From positions 5,066,001 to 5,130,000 of the forward strand of contig NZ_AP019700.1 of NCBI RefSeq assembly GCF_006738645.1: a DNA stretch of 64,000 nt. Reading direction: 5' to 3'. This DNA is from Stella humosa (GTDB taxonomy: Bacteria; Pseudomonadota; Alphaproteobacteria; ATCC43930; Allostellaceae). The notes under the pieces were generated by a model that worked only from the letters and a program-made list of their open reading frames with translations, searched no databases and was not told the origin of the DNA. This document shows positions 14,896 through 29,510 of the stretch, one piece after another (within the stretch, counting starts at the first letter, position 1; each line of letters begins with the position of its first letter). A program made the position numbers and the translations under genes.

Positions 14896-14924
14896 TTGAC
14901 CGGGCGGCGTGCGCCGCCCTACGC
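14896..14924 (+). promoter_or_regulatory. Candidate promoter/operator upstream of the LctP-type permease
   Basis: A TTGACC hexamer (14896-14901) is followed at once by a perfect 8-bp hairpin GGGCGGCG-tg-CGCCGCCC (14902-14919), which would fill the -35/-10 spacer. The -10 position is poor (CTACGC), so this may be a weak or activated promoter, or only an operator-like palindrome. It lies about 80 nt before the permease ATG in the divergent dpaL/permease region. Confidence 0.3.
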
Positions 14925-14999
14925 AACGGGATTGCCGGCGCGACGCTGCATTCACTCGGCCTCCCCAAATCGAAACGGGGCGCGGGAGCCACATCCCCG

Positions 15000-16463
15000 A
15001 TGATCTATCTTGTCTGGACGCTGCCCGCGGTCGCGGTGATCGCGGCAATCGCGAGCGGCCGGATGGGAACGCTGGGAGCCTCGCTCCTTGGCCTCGCAAT
15101 CGCGCTCGTGGTGGCGCCGCTGACCGCGCCGGTCGCGTTCCATGCCGCCGACGCCGCCGTCTCCCTCGCCCGGGGCGCCTGGATCGGCTGGATCGTCGTG
15201 CCATACATCCTGGGCGGGCTGCTGTTCTGGAATATCGCCATCCGGCCCGGCGGTGCTGCGGTGCCGGTCGAAGCCGCACCGGCGGACGCGCGCGCCAGGC
15301 GCCGGCTGCTGTTCACCGCCTGCTTCCTCATCGGCCCCTTCGCCGAGTCCGCCACCGGCTTCGGCGTCGGCATCATCGGCACGATGATGCTGGTCCGCCG
15401 GCTGGATCTGGCGCCGATCCACCTCCTGGCATTCAGCCTGCTCAGCCAGACCATGATCCTGTGGGGCGGCATGGGCAGCGGCGCCATCATCGGCGCTGCC
15501 CTGGCCCGCACGGACCCGATCACGCTGGCCGTCCATGCGAGCTACATCGTCGCCGTCTTCAACGCCGCCTGGCTGCCGCTCTACTGGCGCATGGCCGAGA
15601 AGGCAGGCGTCGCGGCGCCCTGGCGCGAACGGATCGGCGAAGCGCTGTGGCTCGGCACCAGCCTCGTCCTGGTGATCGGCGCCACGGCCCTGCTCGGGCC
15701 GGAGACGGCCATGCTCGCGGCCTACGGCCCGATGATCGTCCTGCGCTGGCTGGCCGACCAACGCCCCGACCGACGCGCCCTCGTCCAGGCCATGCGGCGC
15801 ATGGCGCCGTTCATGCTCGTGATCGGCTGGCTGGTCGTGACGCGGCTGCTGCCGCCGCTGACCCACTTCCTCGAGCAGGCCGGCCGGATGCTGCCCTTCG
15901 CCGGCGTGCCCGCATGGTCGCCGCTGTTCCATGCGGGCACCTGGCTCGTCGTCGGCGCAATCCTGACCGGCCTTGCGCGCGGGCGCGCGGCGACCTTCCC
16001 GGCCGAGATCCGGGCCGCCTGGAAGACCGGCCGTCTCGCCGTCCTGACGATCATCACCTTCGCCATGATGGCCGAGCTGCTGTCGGGCTCGGGCATCGCC
16101 GACGGGTTGGCGCGCGGCATGTTCACGGCCCTGGACCGCTGGGCGATCATTGCCACGCCGCAGATCTCTGCCGTGATCGGGGCGCTGGCCAACAGCGGCA
16201 ATGGCGCCAACGGGCTGTTCATGGCGTCCCAGGTCAGCCTTGCGACGGAGGCGGGCCTCAACGTCGCCGCCGTGATCGCGCTGCAGCACGCCGCGGCCCT
16301 GTCGCTCAATCTGGTCTCGCCGGTGCGCATGTCGATCGTCTGCAGCCTTGCCCATACGCCGGGGCGGGAACGGGATGCCTACCGGATCATGCTGCCCTTC
16401 GCCGTCGCGGTCGTGGTCATCCTCCTTGCCTGCTCGGTCCTCGTGGCCGCGCGGGCGATATAG
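15000..16463 (+). CDS. L-lactate permease (LctP) family transporter
   Basis: The protein is about 487 aa with 12 or more hydrophobic segments. It has LctP-family signatures: FLIGPFAESATGFGVGIIGTMM, LLSQTMILWGGMGSG, and near the C-terminus NSGNGANGLFMASQ and LQHAAALSLNLVSPVRMSI. Characterised members import L-lactate or glycolate with protons; this divergent copy lies next to dpaL and carbamoylases, so another small hydroxy- or amino-acid is possible. The long upstream extension (from 14814) is out of character, so I place the start at 15000, immediately before MIYLVWTLPA. It is divergent from dpaL and may be co-regulated with it. Confidence 0.83.
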   Translation: MIYLVWTLPAVAVIAAIASGRMGTLGASLLGLAIALVVAPLTAPVAFHAADAAVSLARGAWIGWIVVPYILGGLLFWNIAIRPGGAAVPVEAAPADARARRRLLFTACFLIGPFAESATGFGVGIIGTMMLVRRLDLAPIHLLAFSLLSQTMILWGGMGSGAIIGAALARTDPITLAVHASYIVAVFNAAWLPLYWRMAEKAGVAAPWRERIGEALWLGTSLVLVIGATALLGPETAMLAAYGPMIVLRWLADQRPDRRALVQAMRRMAPFMLVIGWLVVTRLLPPLTHFLEQAGRMLPFAGVPAWSPLFHAGTWLVVGAILTGLARGRAATFPAEIRAAWKTGRLAVLTIITFAMMAELLSGSGIADGLARGMFTALDRWAIIATPQISAVIGALANSGNGANGLFMASQVSLATEAGLNVAAVIALQHAAALSLNLVSPVRMSIVCSLAHTPGRERDAYRIMLPFAVAVVVILLACSVLVAARAI

Positions 16464-16579
16464 CCGCTTCGTCGGACGCCGGCGCGATTGCCCTCTTGTC
16501 GGCCGCCGCCCGCGCGCGGTACGGGAATCGTCCCTCCTTCATCGACCGCCGCCCGTCCCCCATTCCCGGAGCGCCCGCC

Positions 16580-18157
16580 ATGATCGACCATTCGTTCAGC
16601 CACAACTGGCAGATGTCCAAGGCCGTCGTCCGCTCCAAGGGCGGGGTCGTCGCCTCGCAGAGCCGGCGCGCGGCCGATGCCGGGGCCGCCATCCTGCGCG
16701 CCGGCGGCAACGCCATGGACGCCGCCATCGCCGCCTCCTTCACGGTGGGCGTGCTGGAGAACTGGATGAACGGCATCGGCGGCGGCGGCTGCATGCTGGT
16801 CTATGTGGCGAAGGAGAAAAAGGTCTACGCAGTCGACTTCACCATGGTGGCGCCGCTCGGCATCGACCCGGCCGACTATCCGCTGACCGGCACCAGCGGT
16901 GCGGCCGACCTGTTCGGCTGGCCCGGCGTCGAGGGCGACCGCAACGTCCACGGGCCGCTGTCGATCGCCGTGCCCGGCTACATGGCCGGCATCGGCCTGG
17001 CGCTGAAGACCTTCGGCACCAAGCCGCTGGCCGAGCTGATGGCGCCCGCCATCGCGCACGCCGAGCGCGGGCTGATGGTCGACTGGTACGCCACGCTGCT
17101 GATCGCGACCGGCGCCAAGGACCTGCTGAAATATCCCGAGAGCGCGGCCATCTGGCTCGACGGCGGCGTGCCGCCGGTCGGCAACTGGTCGGGGCCGCCC
17201 AAGATGCTGCCCTTTCCCAAGCTGGCCGCCACGCTGCGCCACATCGCCCAGAACGGCGCCGACAGCTTCTACAAGGGCGCGCTCGCCCAGCAGATCGTGG
17301 CCGACATGAAGGCGGTCGGCGGCAAGATCACGCTGGAGGACCTGGCGCGCTACGAGGCGCGCATCGTCGAGCCGATCCATCTGCCCTACCGCGGCTACGA
17401 CATCCACGCCATGTCCGGCCTGACCGCCGGTCCGACGGTCGCCAAGTGCTTCGCCCAGTTGGGCGCCAACCCGGCCAGCGGTGCCGGCGCGCCCGACACA
17501 GAACAGTACCTGGCCTATGCCCGCACCCTGCACAACGCCTATGCCGAGCGGCTGGACACCATGGGCGAGGCCGAGGGCACCAAGGAGCCCGTGTCGACCA
17601 CCCATCTCGCCGCCGTCGACGGCGAAGGCAACATGGTGACCATCACCCAGACCCTGCTGTCGCTGTTCGGCAGCAAGGTGACGATGCCGTCGACCGGCAT
17701 CCTGATGAACAACGGCATCATGTGGTTCGACCCGCGGCCCGGACGCCCGAACGCCATCGCCCCCGGCCGGCGCCCGCTCAACAACATGTGCCCGATCATC
17801 GTCACCAAGGACGGCGCCCCGCGCCTGGCCATGGGTGCGTCGGGCGGACGTCGCATCATGCCGGCCGTCCTGCAGATCGCGGCCTTCCAGATGGACTACG
17901 GCATGGGTTTCGGCCAGGCCTTCGAGCAGCCGCGCATGGACGTCAGCGGGACCCAGGGCATCACTGCCGAGCCGGGCCTGGGCAAGGAGACCCTGTCGGC
18001 GCTGGCGAGCGAGTTCGCGACCGACATCCAGCCGCGCATGGTCTATCCCAAGAACTATGCCTGCCCGGTGGCCGTCGCGGTCGATCCGGCGACCGGCGAC
18101 CGCCTGGGCACCAGCGAGCCGTCACAGCCCTGGGGCGACGCCGCCGCGGAGGTGTGA
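16580..18157 (+). CDS. Gamma-glutamyltransferase family protein
   Basis: The 525-aa protein has the Ntn-hydrolase organisation of gamma-glutamyltransferases. The large-subunit start includes GGNAMDAAIAASFTVGV and NGIGGGGCMLVY. The autoprocessing site is at S-T-T-H (T340 as the likely nucleophile), followed by VTMPSTGILMNNGIMWFDP. These enzymes cleave gamma-glutamyl bonds of glutathione and related amides or act as acylases. No signal peptide is present, unlike the periplasmic E. coli enzyme, so a cytoplasmic amide hydrolase is likely. It lies 116 nt after the LctP-type permease and ahead of a peptide ABC importer. Confidence 0.87.
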   Translation: MIDHSFSHNWQMSKAVVRSKGGVVASQSRRAADAGAAILRAGGNAMDAAIAASFTVGVLENWMNGIGGGGCMLVYVAKEKKVYAVDFTMVAPLGIDPADYPLTGTSGAADLFGWPGVEGDRNVHGPLSIAVPGYMAGIGLALKTFGTKPLAELMAPAIAHAERGLMVDWYATLLIATGAKDLLKYPESAAIWLDGGVPPVGNWSGPPKMLPFPKLAATLRHIAQNGADSFYKGALAQQIVADMKAVGGKITLEDLARYEARIVEPIHLPYRGYDIHAMSGLTAGPTVAKCFAQLGANPASGAGAPDTEQYLAYARTLHNAYAERLDTMGEAEGTKEPVSTTHLAAVDGEGNMVTITQTLLSLFGSKVTMPSTGILMNNGIMWFDPRPGRPNAIAPGRRPLNNMCPIIVTKDGAPRLAMGASGGRRIMPAVLQIAAFQMDYGMGFGQAFEQPRMDVSGTQGITAEPGLGKETLSALASEFATDIQPRMVYPKNYACPVAVAVDPATGDRLGTSEPSQPWGDAAAEV

Positions 18158-18213: not shown

Positions 18214-18282
18214 AACTTCCATGAGGCATGGGAATTGCTTGCCGGACGGCAGGCTTCACGCGTCGGCCGGGCCGCCACAGAC

Positions 18283-18310
18283 TTGTAAGAGCGGGCAGTC
18301 CGGCTATTCT
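18283..18310 (+). promoter_or_regulatory. Candidate sigma-70 promoter for the peptide ABC transporter operon
   Basis: TTGTAA (18283-18288) and TATTCT (18305-18310) are separated by 16 nt, each matching four of six consensus bases. It lies about 97 nt upstream of the binding-protein ATG. Two small hairpins lie between: GACCCC-ac-GGGGTC at 18338-18351 and CCGCC-gctc-GGCGG at 18371-18384. Position and sequence are suggestive only. Confidence 0.35.
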
Positions 18311-18406
18311 ACCGGCCGACAAGAAGCACGGAACGGGGACCCCACGGGGTCGATAACCGCAGGGATCGTCCCGCCGCTCGGCGGGGGGCTTGGGAAGGGG
18401 AACGAT

Positions 18407-19930
18407 ATGATCAAGCAATGGGCAACCGCTGCATCCGCGGCGGCGTTGGCACTGGCGATCGGGGCGCCGGAAGCGGCAGCGCAGAAGTCCAAGGACACGC
18501 TGCGGATCGCCTGGGAACAGACGGTCGAGAACGTCGACAACTATTACAACACCAACCGCGAAGGCATCCTCTTCTCGCGCATGGTGTGGGACACGCTGGT
18601 CGACCGCGATCCCAAGACCTTCAAGACGATCCCCAACCTCGCCACCGCCTGGAAGTGGGTCGACGACCGCACGCTCGAGATGGAGCTGCGCCAGGGCGTG
18701 AAGTTCCACAACGGCGAGGAGTTCGACGCCGACGACGTCGTCTTCACGCTGAACTACATCTCGAATCCCGAGAACAAGGTCATCAACCAGTCCAACGTGA
18801 GCTGGATCGAGAAGGCCGAGAAGCTCGACAAGTTCAAGATCCGGATCATCACCAAGAAGCCGTTCCCGGCGGCGCTCGAGTTCCTGACGATCCCGATCGT
18901 CATGTACCCGAACGAGTACTATGCCAAGGTCGGCCCCAAGGAGATGGGCCTGAAGCCGGTCGGCACCGGCCCCTACAAGGCCACCAAGATCGTCCCCACC
19001 AAGGAATACACGTTGGAGCGGTGGGAGGGGCATTTCGAGGGCGGCTCCAAGCCCCACGCCAAGATCAAGAACATCGTCATCCGCACCATCCCGGAGATGT
19101 CGACCCAGATCGCCGAGTTGCTGGCGGGTGGACTCGACTGGATCTGGTACGTGCCGGTCGACCAGGCCGACCGCCTGGAGACGGTCCCGTCGCTCCAGGT
19201 CGTGCGCGCCGAGACCATGCGCATCGGCTATATCGGCATGGATGCCGCCGGCCGCACCTCGACCAAGGCCCTGCAGGACGTACGCGTCCGCCAGGCGATC
19301 GCGCACGCCATCGACCGGCCGGCGATCGTCAAGAACCTGATCGGCGGCAAGTCCCGCGTGCTGGATGCGCCGTGCTTCCCGACCCAGTTCGGCTGCGACA
19401 ACACCGTCGCCGCCAAGTACCCCTACAACCCCGCCAAGGCCAAGGAACTGCTCGCCGCCGCCGGCTACAAGGACGGCTTCGAGATGGAGTTCTTCGCCTA
19501 CCGCCCGCGTGACTGGTCGGAGGCGATCCTGGGCTATCTGAACGCGGTCGGCATCAAGCCGAAGCTGACGCAGATGACCTACTTCGCGGTGCGCGACAAG
19601 AACCACGCCAACGCCACCCCGTCCTACTTCATGGATTGGGGCTCCTACTCGATCAACGACGTGTCGGCGATCCTGCCCAACTTCTTCGGCGGCAGCGGCG
19701 ACGACTATGCCCGCGACGCCGAGGTGAAGGGCTGGCTGGAAGCCGGCGGCGCCACGGTCGACGAGGCGGCACGCAAGGAGAACTACTCCAAGGCGATCAA
19801 GAAGATCACCGAGCAGGCCTACTGGCTGCCGATGTTCACCTTCGTCACCAACTACGGCATGACCAAGGACCTCAACTTCGAGGCCTTCGCCGACGAGCTG
19901 CCGCGCTACTACCTCTACGGCTGGAAGTAG
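18407..19930 (+). CDS. ABC transporter substrate-binding protein, dipeptide/oligopeptide family
   Basis: The 507-aa protein starts with a Sec signal peptide (MIKQWATAASAAALALAIG...AAA, cleavage near residue 25). The SBP_bac_5 (DppA/OppA) fold follows, shown by LATAWKWVDDRTLEMELRQGVKFHNGEEFDADDVVFTLNYI, the family signature region. It should bind a peptide or similar ligand in the periplasm and deliver it to the permeases encoded next. A clear AAGGGG ribosome site precedes the ATG at 18407; the in-frame upstream extension is rejected because the signal peptide begins here. First gene of a six-gene run ending with an unusual fusion protein. Confidence 0.93.
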   Translation: MIKQWATAASAAALALAIGAPEAAAQKSKDTLRIAWEQTVENVDNYYNTNREGILFSRMVWDTLVDRDPKTFKTIPNLATAWKWVDDRTLEMELRQGVKFHNGEEFDADDVVFTLNYISNPENKVINQSNVSWIEKAEKLDKFKIRIITKKPFPAALEFLTIPIVMYPNEYYAKVGPKEMGLKPVGTGPYKATKIVPTKEYTLERWEGHFEGGSKPHAKIKNIVIRTIPEMSTQIAELLAGGLDWIWYVPVDQADRLETVPSLQVVRAETMRIGYIGMDAAGRTSTKALQDVRVRQAIAHAIDRPAIVKNLIGGKSRVLDAPCFPTQFGCDNTVAAKYPYNPAKAKELLAAAGYKDGFEMEFFAYRPRDWSEAILGYLNAVGIKPKLTQMTYFAVRDKNHANATPSYFMDWGSYSINDVSAILPNFFGGSGDDYARDAEVKGWLEAGGATVDEAARKENYSKAIKKITEQAYWLPMFTFVTNYGMTKDLNFEAFADELPRYYLYGWK

Positions 19931-20003
19931 CAGGGACGGGTGACGGGCGGCCGGCAGCGGCCGCTCGTCACCCCCCTGTTTGCCCGCGCCAGAGCAGCCT
20001 GCC

Positions 20004-20921
20004 ATGCTCGCCTACGCCCTCAAGCGTCTTCTTCTCGCCTGCCTGGTGGTGCTGACCGTATCGGGCATCACCTTCATCATGACCAATGCCGCGATCGACC
20101 CGGCCAAGGCGATCGCGGGCGCCAATGCCACCACCGAGGACATCGAGGCGCTGCGCCGCAGCTTCGGTTTCGACCGCCCCCTGGTCATTCAGTACCTGGA
20201 CTGGCTGGGCAACGCCCTGATGGGCAATTTCGGCGAATCCTACCGGCTGCGCACGTCGGTGGCCGAGCTGCTGCTCGACCGGCTGCCGGTCACCATGACG
20301 CTAGGCGGACTCGCGCTGCTGTTCGCCCTGACCCTGTCCATTCCGCTTGGCGTCGTCGCCGCGCTGAAGCCCAATTCCCCGGTCGACCGGCTGGCGCTCT
20401 CGATGTCGGTGCTGGGGCAGGCGCTGCCGACCTTCTGGTTCGCGCTGATGATGATCATCCTGTTCGGGATCATCCTGCGCTGGCTGCCGATCTCGGGCTC
20501 TGGCTCCTGGGCGCACTTCGTGATGCCGTCGATCGCGCTCGGCTACTACGCCACGCCCGCCTTCATGCGGCTGACGCGGGCCGGCATGATCGAGGTGCTG
20601 GCGTCGGACTATATCCGCACCGCGCGCGCCAAGGGCCTGCGGCCGGCGACGGTGCTGTTCAAGCATGCGCTGCGCAACGCGGTCATCCCGGTGGTGTCGC
20701 TGGCGGCCGTGCAGTTCGGCTTCATGCTGGGCGGCTCGGTCGTGATCGAGACCATCTTCGCGCTGCACGGCGTGGGTTTCCTTGCCTGGGAATCGATCAG
20801 CCGCTCCGACATCCCGGTGGTCCAGGCCATCGTGCTGCTGATCTCGCTGTTCTACATCGTCCTCACCTTGCTGGCGGACCTGTTGAACGCCTATCTCGAC
20901 CCTCGCATCCGGGTGGGCTGA
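20004..20921 (+). CDS. ABC transporter permease, DppB/OppB type
   Basis: The 305-aa inner-membrane permease begins MLAYALKRLL and has about six membrane segments. The EAA-like coupling loop is seen at YIRTARAKGLRPATVLFKHALRNAVIPVV (around residues 205-233), which docks onto the ATPase. The N-terminal block GITFIMTNAAIDPAKA and the long periplasmic loop before the TM domain are typical of DppB. I use the ATG at 20004 rather than 19980 because the DppB family begins at this point. It lies 73 nt after the binding-protein gene. Confidence 0.93.
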   Translation: MLAYALKRLLLACLVVLTVSGITFIMTNAAIDPAKAIAGANATTEDIEALRRSFGFDRPLVIQYLDWLGNALMGNFGESYRLRTSVAELLLDRLPVTMTLGGLALLFALTLSIPLGVVAALKPNSPVDRLALSMSVLGQALPTFWFALMMIILFGIILRWLPISGSGSWAHFVMPSIALGYYATPAFMRLTRAGMIEVLASDYIRTARAKGLRPATVLFKHALRNAVIPVVSLAAVQFGFMLGGSVVIETIFALHGVGFLAWESISRSDIPVVQAIVLLISLFYIVLTLLADLLNAYLDPRIRVG

Positions 20922-20924
20922 CCG

Positions 20925-21860
20925 ATGGCTGCGACCTCCACCGTGTTCGGCGCCGGCCGCCTGTCGCCCGAACTGATGCTGGCCCCCAGCCCGGGCGCGC
21001 TGTTGCGGCGGCGCATCTTCGGCCACCGCAGCCTGATGTTCGGCATCATCGTGCTGGGCCTGATGGTGATCGTGGCTCTCGGCGCCTTCTTCGTGGCGCC
21101 GCACGATCCCTATGCCCAGAGCCTCGCCAGCCGCCGCATCCCGCCCATCTGGCATGCCTGGTTCTGGGACAATCCCAAGGCCGGCTGGGAGCATGTGCTG
21201 GGCACCGACAAGGTCGGCCGCGACTATCTCTCGCGGCTCATCTATGGCGCCCGCATCTCGCTCGTCATCGGCATCGCGACGATGCTGATATCGGGCATCA
21301 TCGGCACGACGCTGGGGGTGATGGCGGGCTATTTCGGCGGCCGGGTCGACCTCGTCGTCACCTTCCTCATCACCACCCGCCTGTCGATGCCCGTCGTCAT
21401 GGTGGCGCTGGCGGTGGTCGCCCTCTATGGCAGCTCACTGGAGGTGGTGATCCTGGTGCTGGGCTTCCTGCTATGGGACCGCTTCGCCGTCGTCATGCGC
21501 AGCGTCACCATGCAGGCGCGCTCGCTCGACTACGTCACCGCGGCCCAGGCGATCGGCTGCACCACCCCCTACATCCTGCTGCGCGAGATCCTGCCCAACA
21601 TCCTGAACTCGCTCGTGGTGGTGGCGACCGTCGAGATGGCCAACGCCATCCTGCTGGAGGCGGCCCTGTCCTTCCTGGGCCTGGGCGTGCAGCCGCCCCT
21701 GCCCTCCTGGGGCCTGATGCTGTCCGAGGCCAAGGAGGACATGTTCTTCAGCCCCTGGATGATCACGCTCCCCGGCATCTGCCTCTTCCTGCTGGTGCTG
21801 TCGATCAACCTGCTGGGCGACGGCGTGCGCGACGTGACCGCACCCGAGAACCGCAATTGA
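20925..21860 (+). CDS. ABC transporter permease, DppC/OppC type
   Basis: This 311-aa permease carries the N-terminal OppC-type segment (HRSLMFGIIVLGLMVIVALGAFFVAPHDPYAQ), then LGTDKVGRDYLSRLIYGARISL, the family landmark. The coupling loop is DYVTAAQAIGCTTPYILLREILPNILNSL. It pairs with the DppB-type permease three bases upstream to form the channel. The C-terminus ends LLGDGVRDVTAPENRN, matching the usual length. Confidence 0.93.
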   Translation: MAATSTVFGAGRLSPELMLAPSPGALLRRRIFGHRSLMFGIIVLGLMVIVALGAFFVAPHDPYAQSLASRRIPPIWHAWFWDNPKAGWEHVLGTDKVGRDYLSRLIYGARISLVIGIATMLISGIIGTTLGVMAGYFGGRVDLVVTFLITTRLSMPVVMVALAVVALYGSSLEVVILVLGFLLWDRFAVVMRSVTMQARSLDYVTAAQAIGCTTPYILLREILPNILNSLVVVATVEMANAILLEAALSFLGLGVQPPLPSWGLMLSEAKEDMFFSPWMITLPGICLFLLVLSINLLGDGVRDVTAPENRN

Positions 21861-21878
21861 CCGGAAGTTGACCCTGCC

Positions 21879-22886
21879 ATGAGTGCCATCCTCGAAGTCG
21901 AGAACCTGCGGGTCGAGATCCCGGTCGCGACCGGCAACCTCGTGCCGGTGCGCGGCATCAGCTTCAGCGTCCAGCGCGGCGAGACCTTGTGCATCGTCGG
22001 CGAATCCGGCTGCGGCAAGTCGCTGACCTCGCTGTCGATCATGAACCTGCTGCCCAAGCGGGCCAAGCGCACGGCCAGCCGGCTGCTGCTCGGCGGCGCC
22101 GACCTGCAGTCGACCGACGAGCGGGCGATGTCGGACATCCGCGGCAACAAGATGGCGATGATCTTCCAGGAGCCGATGACGAGCCTGAACCCGGCCTACA
22201 CCATCGGCAATCAGCTCGAGGAAGCCTTCTTGCGGCACCGCAAGGCCTCGCGCCGGGACGCGCGCGAGCGCGCCGTGTTCCTGCTGGAGAAGGTCGGCAT
22301 CAGTGCGGCCGCCAGCCGGCTGGGCCAGTATCCGCACCAGCTTTCGGGCGGGCTGCGCCAGCGGGTGATGATCGCCATGGCACTCATGTGCGGGCCCGAG
22401 CTGATCATCGCCGACGAGCCGACGACCGCGCTCGACGTCACCATCCAGGCCCAGATCCTGCACCTGCTGGCGACCCTGCAGCGCGAGTTGCAGATGGGCG
22501 TCATGCTGATCACCCACGACCTCGGCATCGTCGCCCGCGTGGCCGACCGCGTGGCCGTCATGTATGCGGGGGAGATCGTCGAGAGCGGCACCGTGCACGA
22601 GGTCTTCTCGCGCCCGCTGCACCCCTACACCCAGGGCCTGCTGCGCTGCATCCCGGTGCCGGGCAAGACCAAGCGGGGCAGTCACCTGGGCTCGATCCCG
22701 GGCGTCGTCCCGGCACTGTTCGGCGAACCCACGCAGTGCAGCTTCGCCAACCGTTGCGAATATGCCAGTGCGGCCTGCACCGCCGGGCCCATACCGCTGA
22801 CGACGCTGGGCGAGGGCCGGGCCTATCGCTGCGTGTTGCCGGTCGATACCTGCATAGCCAACCAGGCCCGCGCGGTGGCGGCATGA
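21879..22886 (+). CDS. ABC transporter ATP-binding protein, DppD/OppD type
   Basis: The 335-aa ATPase has Walker A GESGCGKSLTS (about residues 46-56), signature LSGGLRQRV and Walker B LIIADEPTTALD. A C-terminal oligopeptide-transporter domain contains the CSFANRCEYASAAC cysteine cluster, which in this family can bind an iron-sulfur centre. Its stop overlaps the next ATPase start as ATGA, so the two ATPases are co-translated. It energises uptake by the adjacent permeases. Confidence 0.94.
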   Translation: MSAILEVENLRVEIPVATGNLVPVRGISFSVQRGETLCIVGESGCGKSLTSLSIMNLLPKRAKRTASRLLLGGADLQSTDERAMSDIRGNKMAMIFQEPMTSLNPAYTIGNQLEEAFLRHRKASRRDARERAVFLLEKVGISAAASRLGQYPHQLSGGLRQRVMIAMALMCGPELIIADEPTTALDVTIQAQILHLLATLQRELQMGVMLITHDLGIVARVADRVAVMYAGEIVESGTVHEVFSRPLHPYTQGLLRCIPVPGKTKRGSHLGSIPGVVPALFGEPTQCSFANRCEYASAACTAGPIPLTTLGEGRAYRCVLPVDTCIANQARAVAA

Positions 22887-23854
22887 CCCCGATCCTGGAG
22901 ACCGCCAACGTCTTCCGCACCTTCCAGGTCGGCACGGGCTTCCTGAAGCCCAAGCGGCCGCTGCATGCGGTGAACGGCGTCACGCTCCGGCTGGCCAAGG
23001 GCGAGGTGCTGGGGCTGGTCGGCGAATCCGGCTGCGGCAAGTCCACGCTGGCCAAGATGCTGCTGGGGCTGCTGCCGCCCACCTCGGGCGACATCCTGAT
23101 CTCGGGCCAGGCGATCTCGGGCCTCGACCGGCGGGCCACGGCTCGGCGCATCCAGCCGATCTTCCAGGACCCCTATTCCTCGCTCAACCCACGCAAGACT
23201 ATCGGCGACATCATCCAGCTGCCGCTGAAGGTGCATCGCGTCGGCACGTCGGCCGAGTGGCCGGCCAAGGTGCGCGAGATGATGGACATGGTGGGCCTGC
23301 CCCACCGCTATGCCGGCAACTATCCGAGCCAGCTGTCCGGCGGCCAGCGCCAGCGCGTGGCCATCGCGCGCGCGCTCATCATGCGGCCAGAGCTGGTCAT
23401 CTGCGACGAGCCGACGTCGGCGCTGGACGTCTCGGTCCAGTCGCAGATCCTCAACCTGCTGCTCGACCTGCAACGGGAACTGGGGCTGACCTACCTGCTG
23501 ATCAGCCACAACCTGGCGGTGGTCGAGCACATGGCCAACCGGGTCGCCGTCATGTATCTCGGCCGCATCGTCGAGGAAGCGGCGACCGACCAGCTCTTCG
23601 ACAACCCCCAGCACCCCTACACCCAGGCGCTGCTGGCCTCCGTGCTGACGCCGGAGCCGGGCCTGGGCGTGCCCGACGCCAATCTCGGCGCCACCTTCCC
23701 CAACCCGATCGACCCGCCGTCGGGCTGCACCTTCCACCCGCGCTGCCCGCACGCCATGCCGGTATGCCGGACGATCGCGCCCAAGCCGATCGCCAACGCG
23801 ACCGGGCATGTGGAATGTCACCTGTATGATGCGGAGATGAAGAAGGCCTCTTGA
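22883..23854 (+). CDS. ABC transporter ATP-binding protein, DppF/OppF type
   Basis: The protein is 323 aa. Walker A is GESGCGKSTLAK, signature LSGGQRQRVAIARAL, Walker B LVICDEPTSALD, and a C-terminal segment has GCTFHPRCPHAMPVC. I choose the ATG at 22883, which forms an ATGA overlap with the DppD stop and is followed by the expected ILETANVFRTFQVG strand; the longer in-frame extension upstream is a shadow of dppD. Its stop overlaps a TTG start of the fusion gene (TTGA), so the fusion is translated from the same transcript. Confidence 0.94.
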   Translation: MTPILETANVFRTFQVGTGFLKPKRPLHAVNGVTLRLAKGEVLGLVGESGCGKSTLAKMLLGLLPPTSGDILISGQAISGLDRRATARRIQPIFQDPYSSLNPRKTIGDIIQLPLKVHRVGTSAEWPAKVREMMDMVGLPHRYAGNYPSQLSGGQRQRVAIARALIMRPELVICDEPTSALDVSVQSQILNLLLDLQRELGLTYLLISHNLAVVEHMANRVAVMYLGRIVEEAATDQLFDNPQHPYTQALLASVLTPEPGLGVPDANLGATFPNPIDPPSGCTFHPRCPHAMPVCRTIAPKPIANATGHVECHLYDAEMKKAS

Positions 23855-26679
23855 GCGCCGACGATACGGGCGCCGGCGGGTTCGAGGAGCAGGGTTTCCT
23901 CGGGCCGCTGCCGCTGCTCTCACCAGCACAATGCGCGCTCGTCCTGCGCCATGACGCGGCCGGCCTGCATCCGCCGCCGCTGGACTGGAACAAGGGCCGG
24001 GCGGCCAGCGATCCGTTCTTTGCGCGCGTCGCAGGGCTGCCGCCGCTGCTCGACCTCCTGCGCCCCCTGCTGGGCCCGGACATCGTGCTCTGGGGTGCCT
24101 CGATCGTGCGCCGCGCCCGGGGCCAGGTGCATGACTGGCATACCGATATCGAGACGGCGGCCCCGGACGGCCGCTTCGTATCCGTCTGGATCGGCCTGGA
24201 GAATACCACCCGGCAGTCCGGACTGGGGCTGGTCGCCCGCTCCCACCGGCTGCCGCGGACGATCCAGGAGGAACTGCATCGCCGCGGCCTCAGGCGCGGT
24301 GTGCTGGACGACGAGTGCATCCTGGCGATCGCCCGAGAGATCGATCCCGCCGCCGAGTTGGCATTCCCGCCGGTGGTGGACGGGCAGGCGATCGTCTTCC
24401 ACGGGCGGACCTGGCACGGCTCGCACAACGGCCAGGGCGGGGCACCGCGCAGCGCCCTGCTGCTGCAATACGCGGCCGCCGACACGCCCGTCCGCATCCT
24501 CGATTCGACGCGGCTGGAATGGCCGTTCGCGTTTCTCGCCGAACCCCGGCCGCCGGTCGTTGCGGTCTGCGGCCAACTCGACCCGTCCATCAACCGGCCG
24601 GCCGACCCCCTGGGTGCGGAAGCATGGCCACCGCTGGGGAGCGGCGTCTTCACTCCGAACGGAATCGACCCGTCCCTGCCGCCGAAACCGTGGCAGGCTT
24701 TGCCGCTCTTCTCCGGCGCGGCCCAGACCGTCGCCTGCCTGACCTGCCACACCTCGGCCCTGGCACCGGCCCACAGCCCGCACCCGCCGCACAGCCATCT
24801 CGCCGAGGAACTGCTGGTCGTCCTCGATGGCGAGGCCGAACTGGTGCTGGCGGATTCGCCCGACGATCCCGCCCCTCGCCGGGAGCGATGCAGGCCGGGC
24901 ACCGTCGCCTACTTTCCCGCCTACCAGCACGCCACGATCCGCAATGTGGGCAGCACGCCGCTGCGATACGCGATGCTGCAATGGCACGGCGATCCGGTTG
25001 CGAGCGATACAACGCTTCCCGTCCGCATCGTCCAGCCCGATGGCGACGACGCTGCGGGCGCGGCCGTGCGGCACCGGCTGCTGTTCGAGCAGCCGACCGA
25101 TTTCCTCGGCAAGCTGCATGCCCACCGCACGACCATCGAGCCGGGCGGCGGCTATGCCGCCCATGCCGACCCGCACGACATCGCCATCATCGTCCTGTCC
25201 GGCCGGGTGCGGATCGTCGACGGCGGGGAAACGCCGATCGGCGCGGAAGCCGGCGCGGCCGTCTTCTTCCCGGCCGGTGCCGTGCATGGGATGGAGAACC
25301 CGGGCGCGGTGCCCGCCGTCTATCTGACTTTCGAATTCCATGCCGGCACCACGGAGGCGACCGGCGATCTGGTCGACCGCGAATGGTACCTCGCCACGAA
25401 CCCCGACGTCGCCGCCGCCGGCATCGACCCCGTCGACCATTACATGCAGTTCGGGGCAGCGGAGGGCCGCAAGCCCCGGCCGCCGGTCGATCGGCCGCGC
25501 ACGCTCGACGAGATGCTGTTCGACCGCGACTGGTACCTGGCCCAGAACCCCGACGTCGCGACGGCCGGGCTCGACCCGTTCGATCACTACATGGGCTTCG
25601 GGGCGGGCGAGGGCCGACATCCCTGCGCGGACTATCACTACCGGCTGATCGCCCGGTCGGGGCTGTTCGATGGCGATTGGTATCGCCGGCGGTATCCCGA
25701 CGCCGCCGCGTTCGACGGCGACCCCCTGCGGCACTATCTGGCCGTCGACGGCACACAAGGCCGGGCCGCCGGGCCGCAGTTCGACGGCGGGGCCTACCTG
25801 CGGGCCCACGCCGATGTCCGCCAGGCCGGCCTGCACCCATTGCTGCACTATCTCCGGTTCGGCCGGGCGGAGGGGCGATCGGGCACCCTTCCGGGCGACT
25901 GGAATCCGGACCCGGACCTGGCCCGGCGGGTGGACCGCTATCGCGCCCGGCCAGCGCAGGAGCACCGGCGCATCGCGATCTGCACGACGATTCTCGGCGA
26001 CTACGACACGCTGACGGTGCCGGACCGGCTGGATCCCGACATCGATCATGTCTGCTTCGCCGACAGGCCGATCGACGGGTACGGGGTCTGGTCGATGCGC
26101 GCGCCGCCCTGGCACCACCCGGACACCACCCGGATGGCGCGCTACATCAAGACCCACCTGCCCGTGCTGCTGGCCGGCTATGAAGCGATCGTCTGGGTGG
26201 ACGGCAATGTCCGGCTGCTGGGTGATGCGCGCCGCCATGTCGCGTGCGTCGTCGAAGCCGGGTGGGGAATCGGACTGGTGTCCCATCCGGAACGCCGCTG
26301 CATCTATGCAGAGGCCGAGCGATGCCTGGAACTCGGCGTCGATGATCCGGCGGCGGTGGATCGCCAGATGGCACGATACCGCGAGCTCGGCATTCCCGAA
26401 GACGCCGGCCTGCACGAGACGAACTTCATGGTCGTGCGGCCGCAGGAACCCGGCGTGGCCGAGGCCTTCGCGCTGTGGTGGGACGAGATCGCCGGCTTCA
26501 GCCGCCGCGACCAGCTATCCCTTGGGTGGGCCCTGCGCCGGTCGGGCGTTCGCCACGGCCTGCTGATGGAGCCGGGCACGTCGGTGCGGAACCATCCCGA
26601 CTTCGCCTACCTCACCCATGCGGAAAGCCGGACGCTACAGGTGCCGCGCTTCCTGACGGCGGCACCCGTTCCCGCCTGA
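23851..26679 (+). CDS. Fusion protein: PhyH dioxygenase, two cupins, four DWYL-NPDV repeats, DUF616 glycosyltransferase-like domain
   Basis: This 942-aa protein has four visible parts. Residues about 10-205 form a PhyH-type Fe/2-oxoglutarate oxygenase with H97, D99 (WHTD), H189 (TWHGS) and R200. Residues about 290-380 and 405-498 are two cupin barrels, the first with HPPHSHLAEELLVVLDGE and H360, the second with DPHDIAIIVLSGRVRI and PAGAVHG. About 509-676 hold four repeats of the type DWYL-x2-NPDVA-x-AG-x-DP-x2-HY-x3-G-x2-EGR. About 705-925 match the DUF616 (TOD1/MUCI70) glycosyltransferase-like domain: CTTILGDYDTL, CFADRP, RYIKTHLPVLL, VWVDGN (D784) and HETNFMVV. No signal peptide or membrane segment is seen. 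A TTG start overlaps the DppF stop. Product unknown; a soluble enzyme that hydroxylates and glycosylates a target is inferred only. Confidence 0.82.
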   Translation: MSADDTGAGGFEEQGFLGPLPLLSPAQCALVLRHDAAGLHPPPLDWNKGRAASDPFFARVAGLPPLLDLLRPLLGPDIVLWGASIVRRARGQVHDWHTDIETAAPDGRFVSVWIGLENTTRQSGLGLVARSHRLPRTIQEELHRRGLRRGVLDDECILAIAREIDPAAELAFPPVVDGQAIVFHGRTWHGSHNGQGGAPRSALLLQYAAADTPVRILDSTRLEWPFAFLAEPRPPVVAVCGQLDPSINRPADPLGAEAWPPLGSGVFTPNGIDPSLPPKPWQALPLFSGAAQTVACLTCHTSALAPAHSPHPPHSHLAEELLVVLDGEAELVLADSPDDPAPRRERCRPGTVAYFPAYQHATIRNVGSTPLRYAMLQWHGDPVASDTTLPVRIVQPDGDDAAGAAVRHRLLFEQPTDFLGKLHAHRTTIEPGGGYAAHADPHDIAIIVLSGRVRIVDGGETPIGAEAGAAVFFPAGAVHGMENPGAVPAVYLTFEFHAGTTEATGDLVDREWYLATNPDVAAAGIDPVDHYMQFGAAEGRKPRPPVDRPRTLDEMLFDRDWYLAQNPDVATAGLDPFDHYMGFGAGEGRHPCADYHYRLIARSGLFDGDWYRRRYPDAAAFDGDPLRHYLAVDGTQGRAAGPQFDGGAYLRAHADVRQAGLHPLLHYLRFGRAEGRSGTLPGDWNPDPDLARRVDRYRARPAQEHRRIAICTTILGDYDTLTVPDRLDPDIDHVCFADRPIDGYGVWSMRAPPWHHPDTTRMARYIKTHLPVLLAGYEAIVWVDGNVRLLGDARRHVACVVEAGWGIGLVSHPERRCIYAEAERCLELGVDDPAAVDRQMARYRELGIPEDAGLHETNFMVVRPQEPGVAEAFALWWDEIAGFSRRDQLSLGWALRRSGVRHGLLMEPGTSVRNHPDFAYLTHAESRTLQVPRFLTAAPVPA

Positions 26680-26701: not shown

Positions 26702-27880
26702 TCAGACCCGGCGGTTGCGCAGGCGATCCTCCGGCCGGTCCCACATCAGGAAGTCCGGCCCCAGGCGGTCGATGCTGGGGCAGCCCATCTGTGCCATCGC
26801 CAGGTCGATCTCGCGCTTCAGGATGGCGATGGCACGGGCGGCACCGGGCTTGCCGGCGGCGGCCGTAGCATAGAGCGTGGCCCGCCCCATGAAGACGAAC
26901 TTCGCCCCCAGGCACTGGGCGATCAGTGCATCGCTGCCGCGGCGGATGCCGCCATCCAGCATGACCGTCATGCGATCGCCCACCGCCTCCGCCACGGCCG
27001 GCAGCACGTCGAGCGGGGCGGGCGAACGGTCGAGCTGCCGGGCGCCATGGTTCGACACCATGATGCCGTCGACGCCCAGGTCGGCGGCACGGGTGGCATC
27101 GTCGGGATGCATGATGCCCTTGAGCACCAGGTTGCGCGGCCACATGCGCCGCAGCTTCTCGACATCGGCCCAGGTCAGCGGCGGATAGGATTCGGCGACG
27201 ACGAAGTCCGCCACCTCATCGGCGCTGGCGCCCGGCTTGGCATAGGTGGCCCAGTTGTCGAACATGGGCGTGCCGGTGCGCATGTACTCCATCATCCAGC
27301 CCGGATGCAGCAGCGCCTCGAGCCGGGTGCGCAGCGACATCTTGAGGGGCCGGGCGAAGCCGTTGCGCACGTTGCGCTCGCGGTTCGAGGTGCAGGGCAC
27401 GTCCACCGTCAGCACCAGGGTCGACAGGCCGGCATCGCGCGCGCGGGCGACCATGCCCTCGGAGATGCTCCAGTTCCGCGCGGGATAGAGCTGGTACCAG
27501 CCATGCCCGGGCGCCACCCGGGCCAGGTCCTCGATCGAGCCGGTGGCGGTGCCCGACATGATGAAGGGGATGTCGGCCTCCTGCGCGGCCTCCGCCAGCA
27601 TCATGTCGGCACCTGGCCGGAAGAGGCCGGCGATGCCGGTCGGCGCGATGCCGAAGGGGCTGGCATATTCGCGCCCGAACAGCGTGGTCTTCTGCTGCCG
27701 CTTGCTGACGTCGACCATGAAGCGCGGCACGATCCGCCAGTTGCGGAAGGCGTCGACTGCCCGGTCCAGCCCGTCCTCGTCGTCGACGCCGCCCTCGATG
27801 AAGTCGTAGGCGATCTTCGGCAGTCGACGCTTGGCCATGCGGCGCAGATCGTCGAGGTTGATCGCTTGGTCGAGCTTCAT
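26702..27880 (-). CDS. FMN-dependent alpha-hydroxy acid dehydrogenase
   Basis: The 392-aa enzyme belongs to the LldD / glycolate oxidase / mandelate dehydrogenase family and oxidises an L-2-hydroxyacid to the 2-oxoacid. Visible landmarks are the N-terminal AYDFIEGGVDDEDG, FMN-binding APTGIAGLFRPGAD, LVLTVDVPC, the active-site VSNHGARQLDRSP (His-Gly-Ala-Arg), and the phosphate-binding LDGGIRRGSDALIAQCLGAKFVFMGRATLY. I place the start at 27880 (MKLDQAINLDD) because AGGGGG lies 6 nt upstream; an ATG six codons earlier is less likely. It is convergent with the fusion gene and divergent from the M20 peptidase. Confidence 0.9.
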   Translation of the reverse strand: MKLDQAINLDDLRRMAKRRLPKIAYDFIEGGVDDEDGLDRAVDAFRNWRIVPRFMVDVSKRQQKTTLFGREYASPFGIAPTGIAGLFRPGADMMLAEAAQEADIPFIMSGTATGSIEDLARVAPGHGWYQLYPARNWSISEGMVARARDAGLSTLVLTVDVPCTSNRERNVRNGFARPLKMSLRTRLEALLHPGWMMEYMRTGTPMFDNWATYAKPGASADEVADFVVAESYPPLTWADVEKLRRMWPRNLVLKGIMHPDDATRAADLGVDGIMVSNHGARQLDRSPAPLDVLPAVAEAVGDRMTVMLDGGIRRGSDALIAQCLGAKFVFMGRATLYATAAAGKPGAARAIAILKREIDLAMAQMGCPSIDRLGPDFLMWDRPEDRLRNRRV

Positions 27881-28109
27881 CGTTTCCCCCTGGGGCATTG
27901 CATTCCGGCGGCGCGGACTTGACGCCCGATTCCGGCTCTGGAAGCCGGCGGCCGACTCGACTGCCATTCTGGTTCGCCGCCGCCGGCCTTCCAAGGGGTT
28001 CCCGCTGGCCGGACGCGCCGGATTTGTCGTAGGGTCGGCTCCCGCCGCGCGCCCGACGAGGCCGCCCCCGCACCATCCGATCCGACCCCGAACCGCCGAG
28101 GCCCCCGCC
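27881..28109. other. Divergent intergenic region between hydroxyacid dehydrogenase and M20 peptidase
   Basis: This 229-nt gap should carry promoters for both directions. I see a TTGACG at 27919-27924 on the plus strand but no convincing -10, and a 5-bp hairpin CCGGC-tctggaa-GCCGG nearby. Several Arg/Pro-rich frames run through but none looks like a gene. Confidence 0.3.
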
Positions 28110-29510
28110 ATGTCCCGCACCGCGGTCATCCAGGAAATCGAACGCCATTTCGATTCCGGCGACTTCCATTCCGTCCTCGCCCGCCGCGTCGCCATCCCGA
28201 CCGAGAGCCAGAATCCCGATCGCCGGCCGGTGCTCTACCAGTACCTGACCGAGGAGATCGGCCCGGCGCTGACCGCAATGGGATATGCCTGCGAAGTGCT
28301 GGAGAACCCCGTTGCTGGCGGCCCGCCCTTCCTGATCGCAGAGCGGCGGGAGGACGACCGCCTGCCGACGGTGCTGACCTATGGCCATGGCGACGTCGTG
28401 CGCGGCCAGGAAGAGCAGTGGCGCAAGGGCAAGGGCCCGTGGCAGCTCGACATCGACGGCGAGCGGATCTATGGCCGCGGCACCGCCGACAACAAGGGCC
28501 AGCACACCATCAACATCGCCGCCATCGCCGCCGTCCTGAAGCTGCGCGGCCGGCTCGGCTTCAATTCCCGCATCCTGATCGACATGGGCGAGGAGGTGGG
28601 ATCGCCCGGCCTCAACGAATTCTGCGCGCTCCATCGCGCCCGGCTGGCGAGCGACGTGCTGATCGGCTCGGACGGGCCGCGCCTGCAGCCTGGCCAGCCG
28701 ACGCTCTACATGGGCACGCGCGGCGCCTTCAACTTCGACCTGTCCATCGACCTGCGCGATGGTGGCCACCATTCGGGCAACTGGGGCGGATTGCTGGCCA
28801 ATCCCGGCATCATGATGGCCCACGCGCTGGCCAGCCTGACGACGCCGTCGGGCGCGATCCGCGTGCCCGAGTGGCGTCCGGCGCCCATGACCAATTCCGT
28901 GCGCGAGGCCCTGTCCGGCCTGTCGGTCGATGGCGGCGCGGACGGGCCGCAGATCGATGCCGACTGGGGCGAGCCCGGCTTCTCGCCGGCCGAGCGGGTC
29001 TTCGGCTGGAACAGCTTCGAGGTGCTGGCGATGCGCACCGGCAACCCCGACAAGCCGGTGAATGCCATCCCGCCGCGGGCCACCGCCCATTGCCAGATCC
29101 GCTACGTCGTCGGCTCCGACCCGGAGGAGTTCCTGCCGGCGCTGCGCCGCTGGTTCGACACCCACGGCTTCCCGATGGTCGAGATCAAGCGCTCGCGCGG
29201 CGAGGCCGCACCGGCGACCCGGCTGGACCCGGAGCATCCCTGGGTGGTGTGGACGGCCGATTCCGTCGCCCGCACGCTGGGCGCGCGGCCGGCCCTGCTG
29301 CCCAACCTGGGCGGTACCCTGCCCAACCATGCTTTCGCCATCACGCTGGATACGCCGACCGTCTGGGTCCCCCACTCCTACGCCTCGTGCTCGCAGCACG
29401 CGCCGGACGAGCACATGCTGGCGCCGATCGCGCGCGAGGGCCTGCGCATGATGGCCGGCATCTTCTGGGACCTGGGCGAGGCTGCCACGCCGGCCCGGGC
29501 CGCCGCCTGA
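28110..29510 (+). CDS. M20-family metallopeptidase / deacylase
   Basis: The 466-aa protein is an M20 dizinc hydrolase of the dipeptidase/ArgE/DapE type. Metal ligands are visible in YGHGDVV (His-x-Asp), GTADNKGQHT (Asp), MGEEVGSPG (catalytic and ligand Glu), GSDGP (Asp) and HSYASCSQHAPDEH near the C-terminus (His). The lid domain includes DGGHHSGNWGGLLANP. It should cleave a peptide or N-acyl amino acid. It is followed 30 nt later by an amidase and then an M81 peptidase, and lies near a peptide importer, so a scavenging role is likely. Confidence 0.9.
   Translation: MSRTAVIQEIERHFDSGDFHSVLARRVAIPTESQNPDRRPVLYQYLTEEIGPALTAMGYACEVLENPVAGGPPFLIAERREDDRLPTVLTYGHGDVVRGQEEQWRKGKGPWQLDIDGERIYGRGTADNKGQHTINIAAIAAVLKLRGRLGFNSRILIDMGEEVGSPGLNEFCALHRARLASDVLIGSDGPRLQPGQPTLYMGTRGAFNFDLSIDLRDGGHHSGNWGGLLANPGIMMAHALASLTTPSGAIRVPEWRPAPMTNSVREALSGLSVDGGADGPQIDADWGEPGFSPAERVFGWNSFEVLAMRTGNPDKPVNAIPPRATAHCQIRYVVGSDPEEFLPALRRWFDTHGFPMVEIKRSRGEAAPATRLDPEHPWVVWTADSVARTLGARPALLPNLGGTLPNHAFAITLDTPTVWVPHSYASCSQHAPDEHMLAPIAREGLRMMAGIFWDLGEAATPARAAA

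What the first reader, a model, noticed from the sequence alone, without database searches (positions are those of the whole stretch)
23851..26679. PhyH-cupin-cupin-repeat-DUF616 fusion translated with a peptide ABC importer
A single 942-aa chain joins an Fe/2-oxoglutarate oxygenase with intact H97/D99/H189/R200, two cupins, four DWYL-NPDV repeats and a DUF616 glycosyltransferase-like domain. The repeats and DUF616 are more typical of polysaccharide biosynthesis proteins, yet the gene begins with a TTG that overlaps dppF (TTGA) and so belongs to an importer operon. It could hydroxylate a peptide-like compound and then glycosylate it, or modify a glycopeptide. The combination looks novel.
Basis: partly seen in the sequence, partly recalled or inferred. 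Interest (0 to 1): 0.75.

Follow-up and report, generated by a model that had tools for sequence, protein, structure and literature searches.

The report
Oxygenase-cupin-glycosyltransferase fusion protein in Stella
A star-shaped soil bacterium makes one long protein that joins an iron oxygenase, two cupin barrels and a sugar-transfer domain; it most likely builds or decorates a surface sugar coat rather than serving the peptide importer it sits beside.

Summary
Window 23851-26679 is one open frame of 942 aa: PhyH-type Fe/2OG oxygenase (H97/D99/H189/R200 present), two cupins, four DWYL-NPDV repeats and a TOD1_MUCI70 (DUF616) domain above the Pfam cut-off. The TOD1 part is predicted (pLDDT 87) to fold like GT-A glycosyltransferases. 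Genome length matches Stella humosa ATCC 43930. The architecture was found in 2 of 43 genomes of the order, both of this genus. The second copy (60% identical, same site) has a frameshift inside the TOD1 domain, not at a domain join. The halves exist apart: PhyH-cupin-cupin in two other alphaproteobacteria, TOD1 in four (three alone, each beside sugar-nucleotide or glycosyltransferase genes; one fused to a sulfotransferase). The importer link is weak: dppC, dppD and dppF are present in 4 of 4 Stella genomes, but at this site one has about 20 bases and another an alpha/beta hydrolase. Best reading: a bifunctional surface-glycan enzyme (oxidise then glycosylate, or two separate decorations), placed beside, not part of, a peptide importer. 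New combination of known parts; substrate and order of reactions are inferred.

The parts
23851..26679 (+). 942-aa fusion protein, TTG start overlapping the dppF stop by 4 bases
23878..24495 (+). PhyH-type Fe(II)/2-oxoglutarate oxygenase domain (about residues 10-215, borders by eye); H97, D99, H189, R200
   Evidence: Pfam PF05721; residues; invariant; EctD (3emr) among the 3 solved chains matched
24706..25020 (+). cupin 1 (about residues 286-390) with H314-x-H316-x3-E320 ... H360
25075..25350 (+). cupin 2 (about residues 409-500) with an altered set H438-x-D440-x2-D443 ... H479
25363..25887 (+). four DWYL-NPDV-type repeats of about 39 residues
25897..26676 (+). TOD1_MUCI70 (DUF616) domain (about residues 683-942), GT-A-like; D784 invariant in 48 aligned sequences
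22883..23854 (+). dppF-like ATPase, upstream neighbour
18221..22886 (+). dppA (18221-19930), dppB (19980-20921), dppC (20925-21860), dppD (21879-22886): importer, not part of the proposed function
26702..28195 (-). FMN-dependent dehydrogenase, convergent neighbour that marks the other edge of the site

Best explanation
A bifunctional enzyme of surface-glycan biosynthesis. The N-terminal PhyH oxygenase, helped by a bicupin of unknown detailed role, oxidises (most likely hydroxylates) a sugar or a glycan-linked group; the repeats hold the protein in the glycan-building machinery; the C-terminal GT-A domain transfers a sugar residue. Shown: domains, residues, the predicted GT-A-like fold, modular relatives, purifying selection over every segment tested. 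Inferred: activity, substrate, order of steps, the role of cupins and repeats, and whether the two reactions act on the same molecule. Its place behind dppF is a variable site, not evidence for a peptide substrate.
For: TOD1 domain above the Pfam cut-off. TOD1 model mean pLDDT 87.1 from 48 sequences; Foldseek gives 209 PDB matches at E <= 0.001, and the 50 rows shown are glycosyltransferases or enzymes that contain one, by title or, for blood-group A/B entries with bare titles, by recall (E 1.3e-5 to 1.6e-4; query TM 0.35-0.53). Four TOD1 relatives outside this genus among 337 class genomes: one is fused to a sulfotransferase; the three alone each have sugar-nucleotide or GT genes beside them, namely a GDP_Man_Dehyd/epimerase (G308), two GT proteins (G228), and epimerase, GT2, nucleotidyltransferase and dTDP-sugar epimerase genes (G251). 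The repeat lies in four other frames of the same genome: one with GT and RgpF domains, one with WsaF, two with no Pfam match. G461 joins two bicupins, a radical SAM domain and a sulfotransferase in one frame. dN/dS 0.26-0.46 in the seven segments tested.
Against: No glycan gene among the neighbours scanned in the window: importer, amidase, peptidase-type and sensor-kinase genes. The G380 stand-alone PhyH-bicupin sits among unrelated genes. Two of four repeat proteins have no recognised GT domain. The Pfam TOD1 match is partial and TM-scores are modest. One family member, Arabidopsis TOD1, is reported as an alkaline ceramidase (PMC4309442, passages). The second copy has a broken TOD1 frame. The oxygenase half was not tied to glycans by any neighbour.
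Confidence: 0.5

Rival explanations
1. The protein is a functional part of the peptide importer operon and hydroxylates and glycosylates an imported peptide-like compound or glycopeptide.
For: Four-base overlap with dppF in S. humosa and same site in G001; peptide- and amide-cleaving genes around it.
Against: dppC, dppD and dppF without it in G002 and G003; no overlap in G001, where CTGA stands at the dppF end and the first ATG/GTG/TTG in frame is a GTG 14 bases after the stop; no dpp-family gene among the neighbours scanned of L028, G380 and G136.
Confidence: 0.13
2. A mobile or decaying mosaic: the domains were fused by recombination and the protein does little or is being lost.
For: Present in 2 of 43 order genomes; frameshift in the G001 copy; the two copies differ more than dppC, dppD and dppF do, at silent sites too (dS 0.94 against 0.33-0.55; dN 0.34 against 0.05-0.07); lower GC3 than the dpp genes (85.9 against 91.7-94.2, though the other neighbour, the FMN dehydrogenase, is also lower at 88.6).
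Against: dN/dS 0.36 over the whole and 0.34 even downstream of the frameshift, catalytic residues kept, S. humosa frame intact.
Confidence: 0.2
3. Two unrelated enzymes on one chain: a small-molecule oxygenase with its bicupin, and a glycan transferase, joined for co-expression with no shared substrate.
For: Each half exists without the other.
Against: Bicupin and TOD1 each turn up in another chain with a sulfotransferase, which hints at a common kind of substrate.
Confidence: 0.17

Closest known systems
TOD1_MUCI70 / DUF616 family (PF04765), Arabidopsis MUCI70 = RGGAT1
   Same: C-terminal domain matches the family above cut-off; a plant member has in vitro galacturonosyltransferase activity (PMC10576798, passages)
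   Different: Bacterial and fused to an oxygenase and cupins; partial profile match. Link between MUCI70 and PF04765 rests on the Pfam name. No signal-peptide or membrane test was run on the fusion
Lysyl hydroxylase LH3/PLOD3 and kin
   Same: Hydroxylase and GT-A glycosyltransferase on one chain; LH3 entries are among the Foldseek rows of the TOD1 model; start of the abstract of PMC6082870 (search listing)
   Different: Domain families and domain order differ (LH3 has the GT part first, recalled); no sequence relation shown; LH3 acts on collagen
PhyH-bicupin proteins of other alphaproteobacteria (L028 Methyloceanibacter MAG; G380)
   Same: 47% and 41% identical over the N-terminal half
   Different: No repeats, no TOD1; the L028 frame has an extra N-terminal stretch
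TOD1-sulfotransferase fusion (G319)
   Same: TOD1 domain, 37% identical in the matched stretch, multi-domain chain
   Different: Sulfotransferase instead of oxygenase and cupins

Membership tests
PhyH Fe(II)/2OG oxygenase | Pfam match and HxD...H iron triad with 2OG-binding Arg | tested here: met
   (residue roles recalled)
PhyH Fe(II)/2OG oxygenase | 2OG-dependent oxidation | not testable with these tools
   needs enzyme assay
Cupin | Cupin_2 match, two stretches | tested here: met
Cupin | canonical HxHx3-4E ... H metal set (recalled) | tested here: inconclusive
   cupin 1 complete; cupin 2 has D in place of the second H and no E at the usual place
TOD1_MUCI70 (DUF616) | match above curated cut-off | tested here: met
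   31.0 bits against 21.4, profile 164-288 of 314; 0 of 14 control genomes matched
GT-A glycosyltransferase fold | structural match to GT-A enzymes | tested here: met
   query TM 0.35-0.53, so fold class only
GT-A glycosyltransferase fold | sugar transfer | not testable with these tools
   needs assay
dpp importer operon member | conserved co-occurrence with dpp genes | tested here: not met
   fusion in 2 of 4 Stella genomes that hold dppC, dppD and dppF
LH3/PLOD lysyl hydroxylase-glycosyltransferase | sequence membership of the PLOD family | not tested
   likeness in principle only

The most novel reading that the evidence does not exclude
A bacterial single-chain hydroxylate-then-glycosylate enzyme for a surface glycan, built independently of the LH3 type: the PhyH domain creates a hydroxyl and the TOD1 domain of the same chain puts a sugar on it, with a bicupin module as a shared glycan-handling part that also occurs with radical SAM and sulfotransferase domains.
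Probability: 0.22. Interest if true: 0.7.

Novelty: new variant of a known kind. Interest (0 to 1): 0.45.

Why it matters
The paper searches for DUF616, MUCI70 and RGGAT1 listed no study of a bacterial member; the two listed bacterial papers hold only DUF6164 and DUF6160 (passages). A chain tying such a domain to an Fe/2OG oxygenase and a bicupin gives a lead to its pathway, in a host with a complete genome where it can be tested. The bicupin also appears in another glycan-type fusion.

Tried and rejected
Fusion as an assembly or frameshift artefact in the window: rejected, since a second chromosome of the genus keeps the same order of domains in one frame up to residue 841, and PMC6687932 (whole text) reports short-read polishing of these assemblies.

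Importer function: weakened by the empty and replaced sites.

Plasmid-borne relatives: none at E 1e-5 in 72,556 plasmid records with the N-terminal half. The scan of the genome collection with the single protein gave one confirmed locus of 8 stretches, L028; it uses exact peptide patterns, so absence there says little.

Profile scans with the N-terminal half: 4 of 385 class genomes at 1e-20 (two of this genus, G380 full, G136 cupins only); 3 of 398 phylum genomes at 1e-15 (own, G461 cupins only, G084 a plain PhyH match); 1 of 10 in the order of G380 (itself); 1 of 48 in the order of G461 (itself); 4 of 43 in the own order at 1e-12, of which 2 (G003, G006) match over the PhyH part only. These sets overlap, and only a few candidates per genome were scored.

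Fold of the N-terminal half: pLDDT 41 from two sequences, not used. Sequence search of the TOD1 part against PDB: best E 0.4, two rows, unrelated.

The frames printed for minus-strand matches (L005, L011, L014, L015, L017) were of the wrong strand and were not used.

Literature, judged from titles and abstract starts: DUF616 (17 found, 17 listed), Stella names (21 found, 15 listed), MUCI70 (10, 9 listed), PhyH with cupin, glycosyltransferase and fusion (1, a giant-virus paper), RGGAT1 (3), KdoO terms (35, 8 listed, none on that enzyme), PhyH domain/polysaccharide biosynthesis/cupin (27, 10 listed), LH3 (48, 5 listed), oxygenase with glycosyltransferase, cupin and lipopolysaccharide (11, 8 listed). 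None listed names this fusion.

Full report
The reading frame at 23851-26679 is real and unbroken: 942 residues with a TTG start whose TTGA overlaps the stop of the dppF-like gene. Pfam finds PhyH, two Cupin_2 stretches and TOD1_MUCI70, all above cut-off, though the last covers only profile positions 164-288 of 314. Cupin 1 keeps a full set of candidate metal ligands; cupin 2 keeps an altered one. Four repeats of about 39 residues follow, two clear and two worn.

The genome has one contig of 5,832,650 bases, the length that PMC6687932 gives for Stella humosa ATCC 43930; G003 (5,834,761) and G001 (5,339,096) match S. vacuolata and Stella sp. ATCC 35155 in the same table. The assignment rests on length alone.

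Only one other full-length relative was found, in G001, between the same neighbours and 60% identical. Its frame is shifted near residue 841, inside the TOD1 domain. Codons on both sides of the shift look to be under purifying selection (dN/dS 0.46 before it within TOD1, 0.34 after; 0.36 overall), so the shift is recent or a sequencing error. The two copies differ more than dppC, dppD and dppF do, at silent sites too (dS 0.94 against 0.33-0.55), which fits older divergence or transfer at this site. In protein identity between the same two genomes, dppA (76%) and the FMN dehydrogenase (82%) also lie above the fusion (59-62%).

The site is variable. dppC, dppD and dppF are present in all four genomes of the genus examined. 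G003, nearest to the window by these three genes, has an alpha/beta hydrolase behind dppF; in G002 the sequence printed leaves about 20 bases between the two stop codons. A fixed role in peptide import is therefore unlikely.

The parts exist apart. PhyH-bicupin without repeats or TOD1 occurs in L028, a Methyloceanibacter MAG (47%), and in G380 (41%). Two cupins alone are in G136 by profile (E 4e-26), though its Pfam score lies below cut-off. In G461 a 1354-residue frame holds two stretches that match the bicupin profile, a radical SAM and a sulfotransferase domain. Neighbours of L028, G380 and G136 show nothing shared; L028 lies some kilobases from lpxK and Kdo-transferase genes. The L028 frame has a further N-terminal stretch with an STSWRMTAPLR motif that I recall from glycosyltransferase proteins; this was not tested.

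TOD1 relatives outside the genus were found in 4 of 337 class genomes. G319 is fused to a sulfotransferase. The three alone have sugar genes beside them: a GDP_Man_Dehyd/epimerase directly upstream in G308, two GT proteins in G228, and in G251 an epimerase, a GT2, a nucleotidyltransferase, C-methyltransferase and dTDP-sugar epimerase genes. This is the firmest tie to glycans.

The TOD1 part was modelled with 47 viral-contig fragments as alignment: mean pLDDT 87.1. Foldseek lists 209 PDB matches at E 0.001 or less; the 50 rows shown are glycosyltransferases or enzymes holding one, including LH3, a collagen hydroxylase and glycosyltransferase on one chain (start of abstract of PMC6082870). Query TM-scores are 0.35-0.53, so only the fold class is supported. 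D784 is invariant in the 48 sequences and directly follows a predicted strand, where GT-A enzymes carry a DxD motif (position by inference, motif recalled); N786 is not among the columns conserved at 90%. The family has a plant member with galacturonosyltransferase activity (MUCI70/RGGAT1, PMC10576798, passages) and another reported as a ceramidase (TOD1, PMC4309442, passages).

The repeat was found in four other frames of the same genome (150 of 264 candidates scored): one with GT and RgpF domains, one with WsaF domains, two without a Pfam match. In other genomes of the order L010 and L016 hold the repeat with parts that by eye look like GT2 or methyltransferase, and L012 and L013 with parts I did not recognise; these were not scanned with profiles.

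Verdict: a real and rare domain combination of known parts. A role in building or decorating a surface glycan is the best reading, at 0.5; a coupled hydroxylation and glycosylation is possible and untested, at 0.22.

Noticed in passing
L052:2192-6253 (G461:C95): A 1354-aa frame with two bicupin-like stretches, a radical SAM domain and a sulfotransferase; looks like another glycan-modifying fusion.
   Followed up: partly
L059-L138: TOD1_MUCI70 relatives are frequent in viral contigs: 114 confirmed, 80 kept; of 10 longer frames scanned, 7 match TOD1_MUCI70 (one of them with GT2 too), 2 match GT2 only and 1 nothing.
   Followed up: partly
L054:7363-8850: TOD1 domain fused to a sulfotransferase in an alphaproteobacterium.
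   Followed up: partly
L033:3419-4243: In G003 (S. vacuolata by length) an alpha/beta hydrolase takes the place of the fusion gene behind dppF.
   Followed up: yes
L029:17170-17290: Frameshift inside the TOD1 domain of the fusion gene of the G001 strain.
   Followed up: partly
window 14909-18157: Frame of 1082 aa whose gamma-glutamyltranspeptidase match starts only at residue 594; the true start is probably much further in.
   Followed up: no
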